From Cymbomonas tetramitiformis (lineage: Eukaryota; Chlorophyta; Pyramimonadophyceae; Pyramimonadales; Pyramimonadaceae): a stretch of DNA of 64,000 bases. Positions 12,191 through 61,545 of this stretch are shown piece by piece (position 1 is the first letter of the stretch; every line of letters begins with the position of its first letter). The notes below the pieces were generated by a model. The model did not search any database, had not been told where the DNA came from, and saw nothing but the letters and a program-made list of their open reading frames with translations. The stretch spans positions 1 to 64,000 of the forward strand of contig LGRX02033498.1 of NCBI GenBank assembly GCA_001247695.2, given 5' to 3'. The position numbers and the translations under genes were made by a program.

Positions 12191-12890
12191 ACCAGTCCGC
12201 TGCCCCCGGAGGGGGCAGGAAGTCCCCCTCCGGAATGGGTTGGCCTCGGTGTCCCGCCACCTCAGGGGCTGCTACCGGAGAGGGAACCTGCGCGGACCCC
12301 GCGGACCCCGCCGGACTGGGTCTGAAGCTAACTAACCCGCTTGGGTGGAGCTCGGACTGGGCCACCCTGTCCTGCGTCCGCCTTCTGCGTCATGCCTATA
12401 TGATGGCCCATGCGGTGACATAGATCATTTCGTCCCAGGGAAGCAACGCAGATTGCGAGAGTAGCCACCGTGACTCGGTGTAGGCCGTACAGTAGTCAGG
12501 TAACACACTATTCGATGAAAATGACATTATCATATATCATTTTAGGATTTAATTATATTTCAAAAAAATCAGGGTTTAGTGATATTTTTAACGCGAAATA
12601 AGGATGAATATAGGCAATGAGCTACAAAAGTGCAATATGCGTACAAGAAAACACCGAAATATGCATACAAGTATTATTCATCATTCAAATGTTTACCACC
12701 AAAGTATTGTTCACGCTATACCGTCGAGGCATGACTGATACTATCAGTCAGAGCGGTCGACATCTACCCATCATTCCTCTACTTGCTATTATATCATACC
12801 TCTACCGCCACTCATGATCATTCCTGGACCGAAACAATATTATCGCCACACAGCGCCGCTTGACGGACGGTGGAGAATGCCAAGCGCCTG
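12190..12890. other. spacer without recognised features
   Basis: A GC-rich stretch (12,190-12,340) is followed by AT-rich DNA. I see no gene, repeat array or RNA gene. Confidence 0.4.
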
Positions 12891-12892
12891 CG

Positions 12893-13645
12893 ATGCCCTT
12901 CAAACATCCGGAAAAAATCGAAGTCCGCCGCAATGGTGAGCTTGTGCGACTTCTGGAGGCTCCGGCTCTGGCAATCGAAGCGGCGAACGCCGCTCGGGTT
13001 CCTGCGTTGCCCGCCCGTATTCAAAACAGAATCGATCGTCCTCCGGTCGCTATGTACAACGGCAAACGCAAGAACACGGGCGTCGCCCAAAAACGCGCCG
13101 AACAGTATGTACAGGACGCACAGTGGGAGGTCAGCTACGACCAAATGACGGTCGACAGCTTTGCGGTGGCTCTGGCGGTGGAGAGCGAAAACGATAGGTT
13201 CGCATTCCGCGTTCAACTGAGGCGAGGCGAATGGTCGGAGCCTTTGTATTTGGTGAAAGTCGAGGGCCGCATCCCCTCACAGCACGAGTTGAAATACACA
13301 TATTACAGCCCTAGCAAATACACCGATGCCAAGAAGAAACTCCTAGGCAAACTCATCGCGAGCCACGATGGAGCTTTCAAGACGGCACCCGCGGGCAGAG
13401 CTGTGACCGAAAAGTTTGACAAGAATGAAATCGTGTTGTCATGGAACGTAGACGCGGACGACCCCAAAAACAGTATACCCAACGAGCAATATTCGCAGAT
13501 CGTAGTCGCCATGCTAGCACAAAAAACAAAAAGGCAGCGCCGAGACATGGGGGAATCGACAGAGTCAGATGGTAGCGACGATGAAGATGTGGACTTTGAT
13601 AATAGCCGGGCAGTAGCCATAGTGCAAGATATGGATGCGGACTAA
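12893..13645 (+). CDS. hypothetical 250-aa protein with acidic C-terminus
   Basis: An uninterrupted frame starts at the ATG at 12,893 (MPFKHPEKIEV) and stops at 13,645. The upstream frame is open back to 12,818, so a longer product or an upstream exon is possible. Amino-acid usage is protein-like: basic patches (AMYNGKRKN; KTKRQRRDMG), a segment HELKYTYYSPSKYTDAKKKL, then an acidic tail (ESDGSDDEDVDFDN). No known domain is recognised. The charge pattern would suit a nuclear protein or a transposon accessory ORF. The position beside repeat arrays, with no recognised gene nearby, leans toward transposon origin, but that is inference. Confidence 0.55.
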   Translation: MPFKHPEKIEVRRNGELVRLLEAPALAIEAANAARVPALPARIQNRIDRPPVAMYNGKRKNTGVAQKRAEQYVQDAQWEVSYDQMTVDSFAVALAVESENDRFAFRVQLRRGEWSEPLYLVKVEGRIPSQHELKYTYYSPSKYTDAKKKLLGKLIASHDGAFKTAPAGRAVTEKFDKNEIVLSWNVDADDPKNSIPNEQYSQIVVAMLAQKTKRQRRDMGESTESDGSDDEDVDFDNSRAVAIVQDMDAD

Positions 13646-36700: not shown

Positions 36701-39700
36701 TAGCGGTAAGAGACAAATCCACAAACCAACGTTTGAATAAACGTATGGCGGCTTTTTACAAAGAAATTGCTCACTCAGTTCCACGTCTATACCAGCTAAC
36801 CACTGGGTCCGTACATATTTCAATGGCGAATATCTCATAAAACCGTCATGCTTTGTTGTATTTCACCGGCAGAGCAATCCTGCAGCAATTCATTATGACT
36901 AATTCTACCAAACATACAGTGTGGAGTATTCACGCAGAGAGATTGTTTAAACCCTTATTATAGCCGGTGTTGGATTTTTTTTCTTAAAGCGTGTGTTTTG
37001 CGTTGGGACCCATAACATCTCCACCTTACACACCATACTCATGCGGGTCGAATATGTTGTTGGAACCCACAAGACCTACATTTTAAGCTATTATGTATAT
37101 ATGTACTAGCATATGTATATATATATATGTGCTAGAAGTGCTGGTCAGATTTGTATCCTGAACAGTTTTGCATACATTTTTAGATTTTACATATAATTTG
37201 GTTTATATCTTTTCATTGAATATATGTGTATGTATACTTGATCGCTTGGGGACTTTGTGAATAGTCGAAAGTGGCTTCACACAGGTGCGCCCAATTATCA
37301 CATTTGTGGAAATGAACGGGTTATCATCCTACCATGTTTGTGTTTAGTTGAAGTTATATATTTTTTATCCCCCCGCGTTGGTTGATACCGTCCTGGTTTT
37401 TCAGGGCCCTATTTTGGGTGCCCCTGTTTCACGTTGCGTGCCCGTAAGTGGTGTGGCAGGGTGTATACAAAATATATATGTTAGACATATATCACGAGAT
37501 ATATCACAATATCCAAGGAAATTTGGAGTTTCAAAAGCGACTTTCAGTCAAATGCCCAATGACAGGTAGGGGAGAGTCGTCCATGCACGCGTAAAATCTT
37601 TAAAAACAAAAAGGACATTCATTTCAATGTTTTCCCATACTTAAGCAATATTTTGATGATTTCCGCCTACAAGTGCGTATATATCGACCTTGCCCTTAGT
37701 ATATTGGGTTCCCATGGATGAATATCGTAAATTTTGAACATATATGGCCATGCATGTGCAAGCTGAAGCCGACGCCTTCACACATACAGTATGCCCATTT
37801 AACCCCTCTTCCGGTAACGGAATCTCTCACTTCTCTGGGATCATACCTTTTCTGGAATATCTACATCTCTAGAGATCCGATTCAATTTTTGAAAATACTC
37901 ACGGAAAGGTCTGGTTCAGGCGGATCCGATAAGCCTATGCAAATTCATTTTTATCAACTACACACAATACTACGCTCAATAGAATCATAAAAGAAAGCCA
38001 CTATCATTATGACGTGTACTCACAATATGATAACCCTATTCATGACCCTAGCACGCCAATGTACTGTTTAGTCGAGGACTGAAAGTAGGGTCAGTGTTAG
38101 GGTTATAAACAATCATGTTAGGGTTGATACGAGGGATGAATACTTTCGGTAGGTAAAAAACCGCTGCGCGTTTGTAAATACTTTTTACATTTTTCCTAGT
38201 GTCACTTGTTTAAGTGTATGGCTAGTCGCGCCTTGAGTAGACGTTTCCAAAACTATTTTCAAATTGCCATTTGGCTACGGAACACCGCCAGAATCCAAAT
38301 TTTAGTGTTTGTTACGCTAGCGTAACAAATACCAGAAGAGGGGTTAAGCTCATTTTGGACTGAAATGAGGGCCCCAAAAGATGCTTTTGTCGGCTCACTT
38401 TGGCATCGATGGGTATGGTGAGTGTATATGGCTATCACATACTAGCATATCCCCAAGCATGTATAAATGCATAGTATGGACATCAAGTTGCTCCTGTAGC
38501 TCAGTGGCATAGAGCGGTCGCACTAGAGAGCGATTCGTGGCAGGTTCAAATCTTGCCGGGGGCATTTTCCGCCCCTGGCATTTGAAAGGATCAACCTGAC
38601 GTGTACAGTGGATTCGTCACTACCATTTATGGAATCCATCGACCAGCGTGAATCGCCATTGTAGTCTTGCATGCCCCGCCCGCGCCGGGTAAAGCGTCGC
38701 GTATGTATGCCGGTGGTATCGCCTGGTGTGCATGTAAGTCGTGGTCCGTGTTCACTATTGGATGCCTCTGTTGCTTGGCACATGCCAGTCGCTTTGTAGT
38801 AAGCCAGAGTGTAATTAAATAGTATGGACATGCGCCCGTATGTATATCGAGTTTGTGGTAGATGCTGACAACTTACGTGCCGACGTGTGAAGGCAAAATG
38901 ATCAACATCGTTTTGTTACTGTTACGCTAGCGTAACAGTCACCGGCTAAGGGGTTAAAGGTAGCATGTGTGTATTTTTGTATATTTTAGGTATTGAAATC
39001 ACGTGACTTCTATATTTAACGTTTGGACCTCGGTTCAAAAACATGTTTTGATCTACCCTTTCCTCTAGCTACCAAAAAGTTCGTTGCAGAAGCTCGATTT
39101 GTGTGTTTAAGGTGTTTTCTAGGGAAAATGTTTTCCCTGTAAAATGCCCCCCAAAAATGTGCCCGAAACCCCCCAAAACCTCCAATAAGCGCTACATTCC
39201 GAAGGCGGTACCTTAGTTTTAGTAATATCGTATCACTCTAAAAATACCATCACACCATATACAAATGTATTGATATGACACCATATATTAGAGGCATCCA
39301 ATAGCTTTAGTAATATGTCTTGGAGATACACTCCTTTTTTAAGATAAAAAAAGTTACGGTTATCTTTAAAATATCCTTATTTTAATCGATTCATCTCCTG
39401 CTTTTGGCACCTTCTCCACCGCAAGACCCAAGAATATTTATGGCAAAAAAATGCCTGAGCTTTTTTAACCAGACAAAGTATTGTGTTATACTCTAATTTG
39501 ACACATACTTAAACTCTGCTTCGAAATAAACGTCGACAGTATGATTTGTGAAAATTCTATAATATGTTATCACAATTTGGTTCGGTTGTTCCATACCATA
39601 CCCGGTTTCGTCTCCTTACCGGTTACTCATTACAGTAATCACTGAATATCTGAAAAAGGATGACGCTGCTGTCACATTCACTCCATAAGCACAGATTGAA

Positions 39701-53777: not shown

Positions 53778-54004
53778 ATTTAAAACGTGCGATATTTCCT
53801 CTGGTTGCAGCAGCTTTTGGCAGAACTTTATGGAGGAGTATTTCAGGAGAGCTGCTTGTTCACATATACATAACTTGAAAGACTTCTTAGACGAGAGTTC
53901 GTGCGAGTTTCGTTTTAGGTTTTACCATTATCGGTGTTATCTGTTTTGTGGCCTATCCTACTCTCGCAAGCCAGTGGTTACGAGCTTCGGCCGCTGCGCG
54001 TTGC

Positions 54005-54130
54005 GCGGCCTGGGACACGCGAGGGTCGACGTTACAGTTGATCGAAGAGGCTCGGAGAAACATGGACCCCAGAGTGTTACAAACCCTAAATGCAGATTTT
54101 CGTGCATAAGCTCTTGGGGACAAGAGTAAA
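54005..54130 (+). repeat. duplicated exon-like segment, copy 2
   Basis: Reads DTRGSTLQLIEEARRN then MDPRVLQTLNADFRA stop. It differs from copy 1 by substitutions and a six-base in-frame deletion. It lies about 230 bp upstream of the PhyH-like start, on the opposite strand. Confidence 0.5.
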
Positions 54131-54148
54131 TGAGAACTGGACGAAACG

Positions 54149-54274
54149 CTAAATGCATTTAGGAAACAGTGTCTTCACAAAATTACGCGGTCCAAATGGG
54201 CGGATGCTGCCATCGGACGATTCTGTTGAATTTTTTGATCGTGTATCCGCTAGGCGCCCACTAAATGCATTTAG
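54149..54274. repeat. segment flanked by two identical 14-bp palindromes
   Basis: CTAAATGCATTTAG occurs at 54,149-54,162 and 54,261-54,274, with 98 bp between. Confidence 0.7.
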
Positions 54275-54687
54275 GCCACTAAATCCACGGCCGTCGCCTT
54301 CCACTCCCCGCATCCTTCCTGCACCACCCCCCACCCCCCCCTAGTCGAGCACACGACCTAAACCAACGTCAATAGATCGCAATACCGGTGTTAATAGGCG
54401 AGCACCGATCTAGCGGGGGGATAAAATGCACCGGGACGAGAAAGGAAAGGTGAACTGAATCAAAGTCGCCCTGTCGTCATGCGGTCCACAGGTCCCATAA
54501 TGCCCATGACCTATCAGTGTACAATACTAAGACATACTAGTGAGATCTGAATCATCGTGTGAAACGAGGACAAAAAACGGATCCAGGGTTGGACACCACT
54601 GGGAAGGATCAACTTGGAGAGCACCGGAATACACATGGAAAATCTGGTGACGAGAAGCATGAGACATTATTTTTGTGGGCCCTAACC

Positions 54688-55310
54688 CTATGGGTGACCC
54701 GTATCCTCTATCGAACCCCCGTTGCCCCACGGAGCACCACGTCCATACCTCTTCAGGTCCGCAACCTTAATTTCGTACCTCCTCCGAAGCCGGCGAGCAA
54801 AGTCATGCCCTCCTTCCACCATCTTAGCGGTATATGAACACCAAATGTCGAAAAAGAAATCTCTCACCAAAGGTTTGAGTCTGCCCCTCAACTTATCCGA
54901 GACCGCCTGGCCGAGGTGGGATACCAACCAAAGTCTCAGTTATGCTGTTACCTTACCGTACAAAAAGTCCTCTCTGTGCGTCGGCAAAAGTATGCTCTTC
55001 ACTATTGTGCTTGGCATCCTAACGTTAATGTCTGGCGGCAAGAGCCCCTCAATCTTGCCCGCTAATTGTTTGGCCCCTTCCTCGTATGACCTCGCCATAG
55101 CCGGGCATTTACAAAAGATGCGATGCTCATTCGCCACCTCCCCATCCTGTACGTGTAGCGGGCAAGCATATTCCGGGTAAAAATTCGGGAAGTGTCTATC
55201 ATTAGTAACTTGAATGTTCCTTGGGGTGGGCAGGCTGCCCCACCCCAACTTTGCTGCAAAGATGTTGTTCGTATGATGTGCTCCTTGCCCCGCTCTGAGC
55301 ACGGATGCCT
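54688..55310 (-). pseudogene. reverse-transcriptase-element C-terminal remnant with one in-frame stop
   Basis: The frame (SVLRAGQGAHHTNNIFAAKL ... ) contains ACPLHVQDGEVANEHRIFCK CPAM, resembling the zinc-binding C-terminus of non-LTR retrotransposon ORF2 proteins (zf-RVT: C-x2-C ... H-x4-C-P). At 54,940-54,942 a single TAA interrupts the frame (YGKVTA stop LRLWLVSHLG). The same frame then continues LRGRLKPLVRDFFFDIWCSY to 54,688. No RT core is present upstream; the frame is lost just before a hairpin-flanked insert at 55,332. Domain assignment is tentative. Confidence 0.45.
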
Positions 55311-55331
55311 ATTGGCTACTATCCTTAATCC

Positions 55332-55554
55332 AGATCCTCCCACAAGGATCTAGCGCAAATGGGCATGGCGACGTTGTATGTCGTATTTCTTGGCCCGGCA
55401 TATGCTTTGGGGCAATATTTATGAACCTTTTGAATTATCTATAACATTGGTTTGTTTGAAATGTCGATGGTTTGACCTTTAATCTTAGCGTGGTTTGGGT
55501 GGGTGCTTTCACAGAATTTTAATTAAAATGCTAGATCCTACCACAAGGATCTAG
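55332..55554 (+). mobile_element. 179-bp insert flanked by duplicated hairpins (copy E2)
   Basis: Hairpins AGATCCT-CCCACA-AGGATCT (55,332-55,351) and CTAGATCCT-ACCACA-AGGATCTAG (55,531-55,554) flank 55,352-55,530. The insert ends 'aattttaattaaaatg' and shares 'ccttttgaatt' and a GT-rich block with the insert at 60,753. No coding capacity. Confidence 0.65.
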
Positions 55555-55610
55555 GGTACCGACAACTCTAGGCCTTGTTACACGAGCTCGAGTTGGTGCG
55601 TATGTTGTTA

Positions 55611-55622
55611 ACCCTCGAGGGT
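55611..55622. repeat. 12-bp palindrome ACCCTCGAGGGT
   Basis: Perfect palindrome 57 bp beyond the E2 hairpin. Confidence 0.6.
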
Positions 55623-55726
55623 ATCACCAAAACTAATTTTGTAAGCCCTTTAATATATCATACTAGCCGTATTAATCGCCGCATATGCGCATGACATTGT
55701 CAGGGATATGACCGATGATATATGTG

Positions 55727-55795
55727 TCATACATGTCATACCTGTCATACATGTCATACTATGTCATGTCATGTCATGTCATATGTCATAATGGC
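55727..55795. repeat. (GTCAT)n-type microsatellite
   Basis: Irregular run of GTCAT, ATGTCATAC and similar words. Confidence 0.85.
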
Positions 55796-55799
55796 ATAC

Positions 55800-56845
55800 A
55801 GTCGTCGAGTATTGTCAGTACGGTCGACTATGACATGTACAGTCACAATGTTTGTCATCCACTTAAGGTGAGTGACACCTGTCATCGAGAGGCCAGGTAT
55901 TGGCATCGAGATGGCGAAGCAAGACAATTCTTGAAGAACCGAAGTGTTCTGAGAAGACGCGTCTTCGCTTCAAGCATGAAATGAACAACATGTGAGCATC
56001 AATGGCTATATCGACCAGCCGATGCGGGTAGTTCACCCAATGCCCTCGGGTTCACAACCCGATGGTGGTAACGCGTATGACGCGTGAGGGCATTGAGGTA
56101 ATATGAGGAGCATTGCCAGGCTCGAGCAAGTATTCTGGTCACAGAACTGCTGCACTCATACCCCACTACATACTTGCGCGTGCTTGCTACAGTTCAATAG
56201 CAGCCGCGTCTCATATCAGTCCGTATATGACCCTGAGAGACATGGTGTAGTACCGTCGAAATTCGATATTTCCATCATAACCAGGGTCTGAAAATCGTAT
56301 TCTAGAACCTCTAGCGGTAGTTCTAAACGTTCAAAAAATCCAAAAAACATCCCAAGGAGACTTTGAAGTCATATTAAAGTACTGAAGTACGTACTCACCA
56401 AGGCAAAGATCTAGCCTCAAAGCTTTAAATGGACCAAGACTTACGCCCAAAATGCGAAATTGTCCCCATACTTAAGGAGTGTGTATATCTTACCCATGTG
56501 ACCGCGTTCGTGTGATGTGTCCAATATACATGACCCCAGTCGTATTTTGACCCAAACATGATTAATATACCTGCATACCTTGAGATATATCATGTATATA
56601 GTGGCAAAGGATCGATGCACGATTGGCCAAAAAATGTGGAAGATACATCCCGTTTTTGAAGCTTTAAAAAACGCAGCAGTTCAAAATTTGGTTGGGGCAT
56701 GCTATAAATGTATTAGCTAGGAGCATATATGATGGACTCTCGTCGAACCACGCACCATACTACTTAGTATAGGTCCCATGTGGAAAGTATTCCTTGGCGT
56801 TGACTTGTAGAAAGCTCGTGGGGTGCCTAAATAAATGATTGAAAA
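55800..56845. other. spacer without recognised genes
   Basis: AT-rich. Contains the dispersed phrase CTCGGGTTCACAACCCGATG (about 56,046), which also occurs at the left edge of the window. No ORF supported. Confidence 0.4.
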
Positions 56846-56848
56846 AGT

Positions 56849-56896
56849 GATCCTTGTGGGAGGATCTAGAGCGTTCTAGGTCCTCCCACAAGGATC
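56849..56896. repeat. 48-bp near-perfect inverted repeat of the hairpin sequence
   Basis: Two 22-bp arms (starting GATCCTTGTGGGAGGATC; one mismatch) around a 4-base GCGT spacer. Each arm is the E2 flanking hairpin (GATCCTCCCACAAGGATC) in opposite orientation. Confidence 0.85.
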
Positions 56897-56899
56897 TCG

Positions 56900-58235
56900 G
56901 GATAGTAGTCACTATGCACATGAACCTTGCTGATATAGAAACTTAATGTGTTGGCTCGGGCCCGCCTTCCTCAAAGCCGACTGAAGCAAAAATTTTGTCC
57001 ATGTCATCGTACTATAATGTGTGTGTGCATGTTGTCTTTATATTTTATTCATTATGCTCACACTTTCATTGTCACTTACCACATAGTATTTCGGAAGGTA
57101 TCGGTTCGTCTCCCGCAAAATGCATGAGTGAACTCTCGCTTCCTTGGCCCGCCTATCCGCCGCAGCATTCATCATACTCGGTAAGCGTCCTCTCTACCTG
57201 TGTGTGACTTTGCGTGCACCAGTTCTTCTACTGTCTCCACTCCTCTACCTTCCCGCATATCAATTAGCCCTGAGCACCGTTTTCGCGTTTTTTTTTGCGA
57301 AAAATAGGAGGGCTTGCAAAATGCGAAAATTTCGCGAAAAATAGGAGGGAAATTTGTGGGAAATGGGAAGGAAGGAGGGGGTGGGATTTCGCACATATTG
57401 CACCGATTTCCCGAAAATTTTCCCCTCGACCCTGTGTCACGCGATGCCACGAGATGACTTAATTGACATTCAAATATTCTGTTCGAACGCTAGCGCTCGC
57501 GCCTTGGCCAAGAGTGGCCTCTCGCCGTGTCGCCTTCGCATAATTATTGTTCATGGGGCGGTCTTCCACTGTTCTCGTCGAGCATGGATCATGATGAGGA
57601 TCGGTTCTTGGGGTTAAGCCTTGGCTTAGACCTAAATGACGAACAGTCAGGCGCATGCGAGCCACCATGTGGTGACACGGGCGCTTCCATAAGCGTGTGT
57701 AATTTGATTTTAATAATACGTATCATCAGTATGGCCACACTTGTGATATTGTGATTGTGTGAACGCTGCAATTGTGAAAATGCAGAATGTGCACAAGCAG
57801 TCTGATTTGCATTATCTTCCTTGGTGCCATGAATTGTCACTAGCGTAGGTCCGCCGCCTTGAGCTCCTGGGTCCTAGCAAACGCTCAATCGTGTACGCCA
57901 CATATTTGCCTAGTAATAATAAACTAATAATAGCATAACAATGGAATGGAAGAATTATATGTGTGATTCGTGGCTTCCTGCCTTACAAATGCGTGCATGT
58001 CTCTAGCGGCTCTATAATGCGCCCTCTGCCGCATACAACCAAATATTGTTGTATATGTCTATATGTGGCATGTAGCACGGCTAGGTCCACGGACGGGCTT
58101 GCACTATAAATTGCATAATCAATGAAAATGGCATTAAGAAGTCGCAAGAAGTTTCAAGAACATGTTAGAAGTTATAAGAAATCACCCGAATGCAATATTT
58201 TGCATTTTCGATAATTATTGTGGCCACAGGGCTGC
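56900..58235. other. spacer without recognised genes
   Basis: No domain-bearing frame. Pyrimidine-rich stretch about 57,200-57,260 and a TTTTTTTTGCG-type inverted motif near 57,285-57,345. No RNA gene seen. Confidence 0.4.
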
Positions 58236-58239
58236 TATA

Positions 58240-59015
58240 CAAGTCGCAGATGGGCCGCGGAGCAGGATATGCATGTCTCGTGGGCGCGTGAGATATGCAA
58301 ATGATACGGTGAAGTTATTAGAAGTTGTGAGAAGTATCTAGAAGTTATTACTAGGCATCGAGAAGTGATATTTCACATCGGGTCACATTCGCGGGGCGTT
58401 GGGGAGCTAATTTCGTCTGTAAACTGACTGCAAAACAGAAAATGCATGTCTCGTGGGCGCGTGAGATATGCAAATGATACGGTGAAGTTATTAGAATTTA
58501 TGAGAAGTATCTACAAGTTATTACTAGGCATCGAGAAGTGATATTTCACATCGGGTCACATTCGCGGGGCGTTGGGGAGCTAATTTCGTCTGTAAACTGA
58601 CTGCAAAACAGAAAATGCATGTCTCGTGGGCGCGTGAGATATGCAAATGATACGGTGAAGTTATTAGAAGTTGTGAGAAGTATCTAGAAGTTATTACTAG
58701 GCATCGAGAAGTGATATTTCACATCGGGTCACATTCACGGGGCGTTGGGGGGCTAATTTCGTCTGTAAACTGACTGCAACAACAGAAAATGCATGTCTCG
58801 TGGGCGCGTGAGATGTTGCACGTGATACGGAGAAGTTATTAGAAGTTGTGAGAAGTATTTAGAGGTCATACCTAGGCAATGAGAAGCGAAATTTCACATC
58901 GGGTCATATTCACGGGGTGCTGGGGAGCTAATTTCGTCTGTAAAAAGGGCTGCAAAGCAGAAATTGCATATATTGCGGGTGCGTGAGATGTAGCACGTGA
59001 TACGGAGAAGTTATT
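58240..59015. repeat. 173-175-bp tandem array
   Basis: Unit starts GCATGTCTCGTGGGCGCGTG at 58,271, 58,444, 58,617 and 58,791, with a diverged unit at 58,966. Later units diverge more. Each contains GAAGTTATTAGAAGTT and TTTCACATCGGGTCA. It ends about 115 bp past the 3' end of the DDE-like ORF and may be the subterminal region of that element. Confidence 0.92.
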
Positions 59016-59056
59016 CGAAGTATGTACAAGTCATAACAATATACACCGCAACATGG

Positions 59057-59112
59057 CCGTATCTACAATATATACAATATATACAATATATACAATATAT
59101 ACAATATATACA
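59057..59112. repeat. (TATACAATA)n microsatellite
   Basis: About five units of ATATATACAA directly downstream of the DDE-like ORF. Confidence 0.9.
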
Positions 59113-59131
59113 TCTACATAACACTAGAATC

Positions 59132-60763
59132 TCACAGAAGTGCCAACAACCGCTGATGCTCCCTCAGGGGTAGCATGTGCACATCCCCCCTCTTAACTAG
59201 GCGAACATCACATGCTAGTACGGCTTCACACGGAATCAAGCACTTCTTGCTAGTATCTAAGGTGTATGTATCTCGCACGTTTGGATCCGTCCACTCAAAG
59301 TATCTCCCCGAAATCACCGAGTCTCCAGGAGCAAATGTATGTCTATAGTCATCACGGCGGATCCTCCCGCCGACCTCCGTGACACCAGACAACGCCTTCA
59401 CCAAGTAGTAGGCATGCGATGCGTCCGTAGGATCCTTCTTCACCGCCATGATGCTACCACGCCGCACGGCTACACTCACACCCGCCGCATACTCCTCCAC
59501 CATGCCGCGAATCCTCACGGCGGCCGCGCCCGTAGCCGGCCGCAACTCCACATCTCTCCACGCATCCACGTGGGACGTCTCCAAGCATCCCTCCGAGTCC
59601 GGAATGGAGCGCACACACTCCGCATAACAATTCACACAATAGCATGTACGCTCACGTACCATCAACTTCCCCTCGCCCTCCCCCCCCCTTACAGAATGCA
59701 AGCGCTGCGTCCCATCCACCGCCTGGTATGCTGCACCAGCATTGTGATCCACCGCATGCAATCCTCCCGCCTCCTCGTGCAGTGCGTCCTCTGGTACCAA
59801 GTAAAAAAACCGTTGATTGAAGCTCGCTCTTGCCTTGGCGTAACTGCTATCCGCACGTCGGCTCAATCTCTCGCAACAGAACGCATGCAGGTCTGCAGCG
59901 CAATTGATGCGGGCATACCACTTGTCACCCTCTGATATGACCGCCACCGCCGCTGCGTGCTTGACATGCGCCCCCGCCCCATCCTGCTCCCCCTTGGCAT
60001 GCGCCGTCTCAAAGAAGTTCCGTTGGCAAGGTACACCTAATGACCACTCGTATTTGCTATTCGCCACATCCGCAAACCCTGCCGCGCACTTATTTTGTCC
60101 CGCACAACCATCTGCCCACTCGTGGATAAACAAGGGCTTTGCGATCCCCCTCCCGATGAAGTAGTCTCTGATGATCAACTCCCGCATGTACTGAATGAAG
60201 CGGTGATCGTGCTTCCGGTCATCGCTCAACAAGTACACGTAATCCTTCACCGGCACTGGGTTCTCCGCGGTTGATTCCACCCCATCCACGGCCATACACG
60301 CATGTCTCCACACCACGCAGACTAATATGGTCGCCTGCTTCACCACCCAATGCAGACTTTGCACTTCTCGAGGAATGTTCAATGAATGATTCTCCGAGAA
60401 GTCAAACAAGAACACCGCATGTCCCAGTGGCAAATCCCTGACGCACGTCTGAAACTGCCGCTGCTGGTGTAATGCCATGAAAGTGTGATATGCATATGGC
60501 CGCAGAAACGCGCAATCCCCGCAGCCTTCCAACTTCTTCCACGCCCATGCCTCCGGTTGCCCTGCGGTCGCGCTATTCACTAAGAAGTTCCCCTTGCACT
60601 GACAGTTTGGCGAGGCCCCCGGCTCGTGCCCCAGCAACAGCGCCTGCAACTTGGCGATCAAGGCGGCCAGCTTCGTCTTCTTCTGCACAAACTGCAGTCG
60701 CCGAATCTCCTTATGGCTACTGCCCGGTGGTATGGTACTGTCACAAGTACCAAAATGTATGCT
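59132..60763 (-). CDS. DDE-like transposase of an unassigned DNA transposon
   Basis: Open from 60,763 to the stop at 59,132; no ATG opens it, so a 5' exon or truncation is likely. Ordered motifs suit an RNase-H-fold transposase: VFLFDFSENHSL (first Asp), FIHEWADGCAGQNKCAAGFA (second Asp) and FFETAHAKGEQDGAGAHVK (third acidic residue). Between first and second lie HDHRFIQYMRELIIRDYF. A Cys pair TCYCVNCYAEC follows. I know this D ... W-x-D-G-C-x-x-Q ... H-x-K-G-x-x-D-G pattern from widespread transposon proteins but cannot place it in a named superfamily. The 173-bp array sits downstream and a hairpin-flanked insert at the 5' side. No terminal inverted repeats were recognised. Confidence 0.6.
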   Translation of the reverse strand, partial: SIHFGTCDSTIPPGSSHKEIRRLQFVQKKTKLAALIAKLQALLLGHEPGASPNCQCKGNFLVNSATAGQPEAWAWKKLEGCGDCAFLRPYAYHTFMALHQQRQFQTCVRDLPLGHAVFLFDFSENHSLNIPREVQSLHWVVKQATILVCVVWRHACMAVDGVESTAENPVPVKDYVYLLSDDRKHDHRFIQYMRELIIRDYFIGRGIAKPLFIHEWADGCAGQNKCAAGFADVANSKYEWSLGVPCQRNFFETAHAKGEQDGAGAHVKHAAAVAVISEGDKWYARINCAADLHAFCCERLSRRADSSYAKARASFNQRFFYLVPEDALHEEAGGLHAVDHNAGAAYQAVDGTQRLHSVRGGEGEGKLMVRERTCYCVNCYAECVRSIPDSEGCLETSHVDAWRDVELRPATGAAAVRIRGMVEEYAAGVSVAVRRGSIMAVKKDPTDASHAYYLVKALSGVTEVGGRIRRDDYRHTFAPGDSVISGRYFEWTDPNVRDTYTLDTSKKCLIPCEAVLACDVRLVKRGDVHMLPLREHQRLLALL

Positions 60764-60952
60764 TTATTATGGGCACTAGATGGGGTGTATGAGTCCCATG
60801 AAGGTTTTGAAAAATCATTTAGGACCCTTTTGAATTGTTATTGATGCTGAAATGTACTCTCGTGAACTTTAGGTATGTGTATGTGCGGTGTGCTTTTGGG
60901 GGGTGTAACGCCATAAAATTAATTAAAATTTCTGGTACTGTCACAAGTACCA
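60733..60952 (+). mobile_element. 180-bp insert flanked by duplicated hairpins (copy E1)
   Basis: The identical 20-bp hairpin TGGTACT-GTCACA-AGTACCA lies at 60,733-60,752 and 60,933-60,952, flanking 60,753-60,932. The insert ends 'attaattaaaatttc'. It is related to E2 at 55,352 in length, in the 'ccttttgaatt' phrase, in the GT-rich block and in the 3' end. The left hairpin lies inside the open frame of the DDE-like ORF. Confidence 0.7.
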
Positions 60953-61124
60953 AGCGCGCGGTGACTTAAAAGGGCACGCTATGTGGCCACGAGGTGGCAT
61001 GCATGATGTCAAATTTCATTATTGGGATGTATCCTAAGTGGTCGTCATGCGGTGTGCCATTTGAACGTCTTTAACGCCAGTATTGGGATTCGATAACACC
61101 CAAGGGTGTGATAAAATGGCCTCT

Positions 61125-61545
61125 CACCCTACATTCTGGGAAAATCAGAAGACGTCTAGAAGACGTCTTCTGAACGTCTTATAGACGTCTTCGTAGAAAT
61201 GATGTCTTCTGGTTTCCAGAAGACGTCTTCTGATGGGAACGTCTTCTGGAAACCAGAAGACACTCTTCGGGGAAGACGTGCCGAAGATGTGCGGAATGTC
61301 TTCCGGATTTCGGAAGACATCTTCCCGGAAGACATGCAAAGGGCAGTCTTCCCGGAAGATAACCGGAAGATGTTCCGAATGTCTTCTGGGTCAGAATACA
61401 TTCTGACATGTGTTATCGACACATATGTGATGATTATGCAATTTGGCCACATAGCTACTTCATACCACACGTACGCTAGTCGCGTAATCACAGATGACAT
61501 TCAGAAGGCGCACGGAAGACATGCGGAAGACATTCCAGGTTTCTT
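61125..61545. repeat. GAAGAC/GTCTTC inverted-repeat cluster
   Basis: Dense nested palindromes on GAAGAC: AGAAGACGTCTTCT, TTCTGGTTTCCAGAAGAC, TCTTCCGGATTTCGGAAGA and others. The cluster starts just after CACCCTACATTCTGGG (61,125), a possible element terminus. Subterminal arrays like this are typical of CACTA elements. Confidence 0.75.

What the first reader, a model, noticed from the sequence alone, without database searches (positions are those of the whole stretch)
55332..60952. Two related ~180-bp inserts, each bounded by a duplicated hairpin with locus-specific stems
E2 (55,352-55,530, 179 bp) and E1 (60,753-60,932, 180 bp) are diverged relatives: same length, shared 'ccttttgaatt', a shared GT-rich block and a shared A/T 3' end. 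Each is flanked by a direct repeat of ~20 bp that is itself a hairpin. The stems differ between loci (GATCCT versus GGTACT) but the loop side keeps CACA. If the direct repeats are target duplications, the element inserts into hairpins with a CACA loop. If they belong to the element, the stems have changed in a compensated way. Neither fits a transposon class I know.
Basis: partly seen in the sequence, partly recalled or inferred. Interest (0 to 1): 0.75.

Follow-up and report, generated by a model that had tools for sequence, protein, structure and literature searches.

The report
Transposon ends with paired palindromes
The two 'inserts' are not separate insertions: each is the stretch near the left end of a repeated, apparently gene-less DNA transposon of a green alga, and the hairpins are short palindromes that belong to the transposon and have changed in step from one transposon family to the next.

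Summary
The sequence observation is right: E1 and E2 are related, and each lies between direct copies of a palindrome. The frame is wrong. Genome copies show that E2 is bases 40-218 of a ~1,047-bp terminal-inverted-repeat (TIR) element (window 55313-56911, lengthened by a 546-bp nested insertion). E1 is the same part of a ~1,086-bp element whose left 413 bp survive in the window (60714-61126). Both start TGGCTACT and make 4-bp target duplications (28 of 30 E2 loci; 25 of 30 E1 loci; each 30 includes the window copy). The hairpins are neither target duplications nor insertion boundaries. They are subterminal palindromes at fixed places: about +20 and +220 from the left end, and two about 30 bp apart near the right end. 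Within a family the four share one stem, give or take single letters; between families it changes on both arms (GGTACT, GATCCT, AGTCCT). The CACA loop is not universal. No transposase was evident in the three copies checked, so these look like non-autonomous, MITE-like elements, probably of Cymbomonas tetramitiformis. The palindromes most likely serve as paired half-sites for an unidentified transposase, as in Hermes; this is inferred. Superfamily open. Ordinary in kind; the concerted change of the palindromes is the good part.

The parts
55313..56911 (+). E2-family TIR element, window copy (1,599 bp because of a nested insertion; 25 of 30 loci hold copies of 1,046-1,056 bp)
   Evidence: boundaries from BLAST and end alignment with 30 genome loci, one of them the window itself
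55309..55312 (.). left target duplication CTAT of the E2-family copy
   Evidence: L011
56912..56915 (.). right target duplication CTAT of the E2-family copy
   Evidence: L011
55313..55324 (+). left TIR TGGCTACTATCC
56900..56911 (-). right TIR, GGATAGTAGTCA here (GGATAGTAGCCA in 28 of the 29 other loci; not recognised in L016)
55693..56238 (.). 546-bp nested insertion in the E2-family copy, absent from the two copies it was aligned with
   Evidence: aligned with L013 and L023
56848..56867 (-). subterminal palindrome 3 (inverted; 6 of 7 pairs)
56878..56897 (+). subterminal palindrome 4 (6 of 7 pairs)
60714..61126 (+). left 413 bp of an E1-family TIR element (22 of 25 copies with both ends are 1,083-1,089 bp); the right part was not found on the contig
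60710..60713 (.). CTTA, presumed left target duplication of the E1-family copy (right partner missing)
   Evidence: L049
59132..60712 (-). coding remnant beside which the E1-family copy starts; proteins P0001 and P0003 read on through DGKEIRR at this point

Best explanation
E1 and E2 are the left subterminal regions of two related families of TIR DNA transposons that look non-autonomous (MITE-like, about 1.05-1.09 kb, no transposase evident in the copies checked). SHOWN: both begin TGGCTACT and end in its complement, make 4-bp target duplications at unrelated sites, and carry four short palindromes at fixed distances from their ends; the palindromes belong to the element, not to the target. 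SHOWN in one copy of each of three families: the four palindromes share one stem, give or take single letters, and the stem differs between families by changes on both arms. INFERRED: a transposase supplied in trans cuts at the TIRs and pastes the element with a 4-bp stagger; its DNA-binding domains, acting as a symmetric pair, read the two half-sites of each palindrome; each family's palindromes changed in step with its transposase's specificity. A palindrome on each side of a 180-bp stretch is then just two of the element's four binding sites.
For: E2: 635 first-look candidates, 40 scored (all 99-100% identical), 30 made loci, one of them the window. Alignments with the window run from 55307-55316 to 56880-56918 and, with few exceptions (L033, L021, L029), no further. 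Exact 4-bp duplications at 28 of 30, 5-bp at none; flanks dealt anew among loci match in 1.2 of 30 on average, 6 at most. E1: 821 candidates, 40 scored, 30 loci, one of them the window; homology to the window starts at 60705-60714 in the 29 others; exact 4-bp duplication at 25 of 30. Palindromes at element positions 20 and 220 or 221, and two 30 bp apart near the right end, in one printed copy each of E1, E2 and a third family E3 (1,061 bp, TSD CATA). Landmarks co-register from the TIR. Two more single copies, 1,338 and 669 bp, share termini, exact 4-bp TSDs and palindromes with GGTCCT or AGTCCT stems. Protein-level empty site: P0001 and P0003 read DGKEIRR without a break where the E1 copy starts. 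Precedent for the role: in the hAT element Hermes two subterminal repeats beside the TIR form a quasi-palindrome bound cooperatively by two BED domains (PMC10368747, passages).
Against: No transposase or autonomous copy was found, so mobilisation in trans and the binding role are untested. Hairpin or cruciform formation cannot be excluded: symmetry serves either. The window's E1 copy has no right end on its contig. Loci without an exact duplication: E2 L016 (right end not recognised) and L033 (CTAT v. AACA); E1 L048 (TGAA v. CCAA), L049 (the window), L062 (only an E2-like end, CTTA v. CTTG), L073 (no own right end), L074 (locus ends). In one search the right end was chosen by TSD among motif matches; 21 of the 25 passing loci had one candidate, and in the other four the first of two passed. 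P0003 is an annotated gene model and could be spliced, so the protein-level empty site is supportive only.
Confidence: 0.88

Rival explanations
1. Same TIR elements, but the palindromes work as structures: extruded cruciforms or single-strand hairpins that help cutting, replication or silencing, so that pairing rather than half-site sequence is selected.
For: Comparing the first palindromes of E1, E2 and E3, 4 of 7 pairs differ and each differs on both arms with pairing kept (my count); loops vary (GTCACA, CCCACA, TACCCA).
Against: Arms are only 6-10 bp; nearly the same letters recur at all four places of a family, which pairing alone would not require but one sequence-reading protein would.
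Confidence: 0.25
2. One reading: a ~180-bp element inserts into hairpins with a CACA loop and duplicates the ~20-bp target. A published model for IS1272 allows duplication of a whole stem-loop (PMC5678879, passages).
For: Direct repeats of 20-22 bp on both sides of each stretch; target stem-loops of 22, 24 and 30 bp are reported for IS1272.
Against: The same hairpins flank the same stretch in 30 of 30 E2 loci whose outer flanks differ; the element extends 19 bp beyond the left hairpin and about 800 bp beyond the right one; TSDs are 4 bp.
Confidence: 0.01
3. Site-specific (tyrosine) recombinase cassette: the palindrome with its 6-bp spacer is a lox-like site and E is a circle integrated between two copies.
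For: Inverted arms with an asymmetric 6-bp spacer resemble recombinase core sites; the Crypton paper gives 11-13-bp arms and 6-8-bp spacers (PMC3212892, passages).
Against: In the 60 loci examined E was always joined to the TGGCTACT-type end, though the queries would favour that; palindromes 3 and 4 are inverted and carry no cassette; TIRs and 4-bp TSDs explain the insertions.
Confidence: 0.02

Closest known systems
Non-autonomous TIR DNA transposons / MITEs (as a kind)
   Same: TIRs, fixed-length TSD, many near-identical copies at unrelated sites, no transposase evident in the copies checked
   Different: 0.67-1.34 kb, long for MITEs (recalled); superfamily unassigned because the partner transposase is unknown
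hAT element Hermes with subterminal repeats STR1-STR2 (PMC10368747, passages read)
   Same: Quasi-palindromic subterminal repeats beside the TIR, more sites further in
   Different: hAT TSD is 8 bp (recalled); here 4 bp, longer palindromes, two at each end
Ginger1/Ginger2 (PMC2836005, passages read)
   Same: 4-bp TSD; termini begin TG and end CA
   Different: Ginger termini are TGTNR and Ginger1 targets CCGG/CCGT; here TGGCT and varied TSDs
IS1272 stem-loop replacing transposition (PMC5678879, passages read)
   Same: Palindromes of 20-30 bp at the scene
   Different: There the palindrome is the target and is lost, with no TSD; here it belongs to the element

Membership tests
Non-autonomous TIR DNA transposon (MITE-like) | terminal inverted repeats | tested here: met
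   TGGCTACTATCC / GGATAGTAGCCA (E2), TGGCTACTGCCC / GGGCAGTAGCCA (E1):
Non-autonomous TIR DNA transposon (MITE-like) | fixed-length target duplication | tested here: met
   4 bp at 28 of 30 E2 loci and 25 of 30 E1 loci
Non-autonomous TIR DNA transposon (MITE-like) | no transposase gene | tested here: inconclusive
   longest stop-free run 132 aa (E1), 79 aa (E2), 71 aa (E3) in one copy each; these runs were not scanned against Pfam; the 1,338- and 669-bp copies were not checked
Ginger | TGTNR termini; CCGG/CCGT (Ginger1) or RTATAY (Ginger2) targets | tested here: not met
   termini TGGCT; varied TSDs against the definition
CACTA (En/Spm) | termini CACTA/CACTG, 3-bp TSD (recalled) | tested here: not met
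   termini TGGCTACT, 4-bp TSD
hAT | 8-bp TSD (recalled) | tested here: not met
   no match beyond 4 bp
piggyBac / Kolobok | TTAA target (piggyBac: abstract; Kolobok: recalled) | tested here: not met
   TSDs vary; TTAA at one E2 locus (L036) and one E1 locus (L060)
Chapaev, Sola, Academ | own transposase; 3-4-bp TSD and typical termini (recalled) | not tested
   TSD length compatible; no transposase found, and no source read here gives their termini
Helitron / Helentron | no TIR, no TSD, hairpin near the 3' end | tested here: not met
   TIRs and 4-bp TSDs present; Helitron features
Replitron | no TIRs, short direct terminal repeats, HUH endonuclease | tested here: not met
   TIRs present; definition from PMC10741241
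Crypton / tyrosine-recombinase element | short direct terminal repeats, no TIR | tested here: not met
   TIRs present; definition

The most novel reading that the evidence does not exclude
These families belong to an undescribed transposase superfamily of prasinophyte algae, marked by TGGCTACT termini, a 4-bp TSD and a four-palindrome end code in which all eight half-sites of an element are rewritten together whenever the transposase changes its specificity, so that families become orthogonal and do not mobilise one another.
Probability: 0.15. Interest if true: 0.55.

Novelty: new member of a known kind. Interest (0 to 1): 0.27.

Why it matters
It removes a supposed new class of hairpin-targeting element and replaces it with a clean case of transposon-end evolution: at least three, perhaps five, related families in one alga whose subterminal palindromes keep their places while their stems change. 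That is natural data on how transposases and their binding sites diverge, and it gives an end signature with which to look for the missing transposase in an algal genome whose repeats are largely unclassified (43.6% of the published assembly).

Tried and rejected
Tried and led nowhere: viral-contig scans with the E core (1 chance hit in an AT-rich contig), with the E2 hairpin (0 hits), and with TTAATTAAAAT-N-CTnnCACAAG (9 hits, each with a stem of 2 bp); P0001 in viral contigs (6 stretches matched a pattern, none a relative). Rfam: nothing on E1 or E2; eight matches in 55000-61300, all below their gathering scores, two of them on palindromes 3 and 4; in the whole window one tRNA. RNA folding of the E1 and E2 bodies lies within 1.1 SD of 100 mononucleotide shuffles, weaker than their mean in three of four cases; with both hairpins included three of the four strands fold 1.4 to 3.2 SD and one 0.6 SD below the mean, mostly the two repeats pairing with each other. 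Pfam on five ORFs of the region: only DUF4218, 26.3 bits against a cut-off of 27.

Considered and rejected: introner (the hairpins do not bound the insertion), SINE with a long TSD, tyrosine-recombinase cassette, HUH/IS608-like ends, CRISPR-like repeat duplication, IS1272-like stem-loop targeting; searches removed them. Before, working from the window alone, I leaned towards the recombinase and target-duplication readings; that was wrong.

Errors and biases of mine: the pattern had one N too many, so its six matches are copies whose hairpin is one base out of register (3 of 6 with an exact TSD: L078, L079, L082); the corrected pattern did not complete. The lower variability of the left 243 bp is no evidence of constraint, because the loci were ranked by that stretch. 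In one search palindromes were picked by half-site and at least 6 of 7 pairs, so its pairing totals (E1 693 of 693, E2 756 of 812, E3 26 of 28) lean upward. The 25 of 25 for E1 is circular; the fair count is 25 of 30. One search compared a protein with itself and told nothing.
Full report
WHAT WAS CLAIMED.

The hairpins and lengths are as stated. E1 and E2 align better than every one of 1,000 dinucleotide shuffles (global 73 v. max 62; local 89 v. max 76). No other hairpin with exact 6-bp arms and a 6-bp loop ending CACA recurs with the same arm within 1 kb in the window.

WHERE IT COMES FROM. The window is eukaryotic DNA. The assembly G000 has 851.7 Mb in 25,745 contigs; a published C. tetramitiformis assembly has 914.3 Mb (PMC10675990, passages).

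THE CLUE INSIDE THE WINDOW. Comparing outside the hairpins showed TGGCTACT 19 bp left of the first hairpin at both loci, and AGTAGTCA beside the extra E2-type palindromes near 56.9 kb. From TGGCTACT the shared landmarks fall at 25/25, 114/113, 207/206 and 226/225, with TGAAATGT the exception at 145/135.

THE GENOME SETTLES E2. A search with 55325-55560 gave 635 first-look candidates, of which 40 were scored, all 99-100% identical; 30 became loci, L011 being the window itself. In alignments over 150 bp they share the stretch from about 55313 to about 56911 with the window and little outside: L033 also has the window's left neighbourhood but another right flank, L021 and L029 have side matches of other repeats, and L016 stops at 56880. 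Copies in 25 of 30 loci are 1,046-1,056 bp; the window copy is 1,599 bp because of a 546-bp nested insertion at 55693-56238. Ends are TGGCTACTATCC (TGACTACT in L030, TGGCCACT in L039) and GGATAGTAGCCA. Exact 4-bp duplications flank 28 of 30; the misses are L016 (right end not recognised) and L033. None extends to 5 bp, and flanks dealt anew match in 1.2 of 30 on average, at most 6. Twenty-five full-length copies are 98.5% identical on average, 96.9% at least, but these loci were chosen for high identity.

THE GENOME SETTLES E1. The same search with 60725-60960 gave 821 candidates, 40 scored, 30 loci, L049 being the window. Homology to the window starts at 60705-60714 and stops at or before 61126 in the 29 others. 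Of the 25 loci with both ends and an exact 4-bp duplication, 22 hold copies of 1,083-1,089 bp; all 25 end GCAGTAGCCA. The five misses are L048 (ends found, TGAA v. CCAA), L049, L062 (only an E2-like end 1,350 bp on, CTTA v. CTTG), L073 (own right end not found) and L074 (locus ends one base after the element). A right end for the window's E1 copy was not found on the contig up to its end at 99,053 by search for the end motif and the palindrome, so that copy seems broken at 61126.

AN EMPTY SITE AT PROTEIN LEVEL. The E1 copy starts at 60714, straight after the codons for KEIRR of the minus-strand frame 59132-60712. P0001 and P0003 read ...DGKEIRR... without a break. The presumed duplication CTTA (TAAG on the coding strand) fits a GGT-AAG junction; the third base of that glycine codon was not seen, and P0003 is a gene model that could be spliced, so this is supportive only. 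A DNA empty-site search did not complete.

WHAT THE HAIRPINS ARE. One printed copy each of E1 (L047) and E2 (L013) carries four palindromes: at 20 and 220 or 221 from the left end, and two 30 bp apart near the right end. Over all loci, the first two are perfect in 30 of 30 E2 and 25 of 25 complete E1 copies, and the third in 28 of 30 and 25 of 25. A third family, E3, turned up beside one E2 copy (1,061 bp, TSD CATA) with palindromes at 20, 220, 998 and 1028. E2 and E3 are 78% identical over 54 bp at the same internal position (463 and 464), E1 and E2 82% over 33 bp (611 and 583), and TACTTAAG lies at 605, 608 and 633 in E2, E3 and E1, which speaks for common descent. The stem is TGGTACT in E1, AGATCCT in E2 and TAGTCCT in E3. 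In E1 all four are the same; in E2 and E3 palindromes 3 and 4 each differ by a letter that breaks one of seven pairs. Comparing the first palindromes of the three families, 4 of 7 pairs differ and each differs on both arms (my count). Loops are GTCACA, GTCACA, ATCACA (read inverted) and ATGACT in E1, CCCACA or ACCACA in E2, but TACCCA, TGGGGA or TCCCCA in E3, so CACA is not a rule. Two further single copies with the same termini and exact 4-bp TSDs are 1,338 bp (L078, a GGTCCT palindrome) and 669 bp (L079, AGTCCT); L077 and L080 have the left end but no matched right end.

HOW IT MOST LIKELY WORKS. Shown: TIRs, 4-bp TSDs, copies at unrelated sites, fixed palindromes, family-wide stems. Inferred: movement by a transposase acting in trans, and binding of a symmetric pair of its DNA-binding domains to each palindrome. 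The closest worked-out case that I read of is Hermes, where two subterminal repeats next to the left TIR form a quasi-palindrome bound cooperatively by two BED domains, and exact phasing matters (PMC10368747, passages). A structural role (cruciform, hairpin) is the main rival; the recurrence of nearly the same letters at four places favours a protein that reads sequence.

FAMILY. As a kind this is a TIR transposon, apparently non-autonomous. The superfamily is open. Ginger shares TG...CA ends and 4-bp TSD but is defined by TGTNR ends and particular targets (PMC2836005, passages), which are not met. CACTA and hAT (recalled) and piggyBac (abstract) are not met. Sola, Chapaev and Academ were not tested. 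No paper naming such elements was seen in two searches: Cymbomonas with 'transposable element' (6 papers) and with 'terminal inverted repeat' (4 papers). Of these I looked into PMC10675990 and, on integration only, PMC12220804, both by passages. That is a thin search; the elements may well sit among the unclassified repeats of the published assembly.

VERDICT. The covarying four-palindrome ends are the part worth keeping.

Noticed in passing
window 38310-38327 and 38920-38937: Perfect palindrome TGTTACGCTAGCGTAACA twice, 610 bp apart, in direct orientation, both followed at a similar distance by GGGGTTAA, with a tRNA-like gene between (38490-38564, Rfam tRNA 40.8 bits); the bases just outside the two copies also differ in a paired way. 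Possibly another element with palindromic ends.
   Followed up: partly
window 13606-13619 (minus strand): TGGCTACTGCCCGG, 14 bases identical to the E1 left end, inside the plus-strand open frame 12818-13645. Perhaps a remnant, perhaps chance.
   Followed up: no
window 55693-56238: 546-bp nested insertion in the E2-family copy, with ATGTCAT-type repeats; 55696-56215 has an 86% match elsewhere in locus L029. Its own ends were not resolved.
   Followed up: partly
E3 element on C25302 (L045+L013 joined), element positions 635-662: A stretch 89% identical over 28 bp to the E1 right end, ending AGTAGCCA, lies inside E3: a degraded E1-type end or a shared ancestor.
   Followed up: no
L033: Shares 53825-55653 with the window at 99.6% and the element's right part, but has a different right flank: a rearranged or alternative copy of the window's locus.
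   Followed up: no
window 61145-61280: Dense inverted repeats of AGAAGACGTCTTCT type soon after the break of the E1 copy, with related stretches near 66.7-67.2 kb of the contig.
   Followed up: partly
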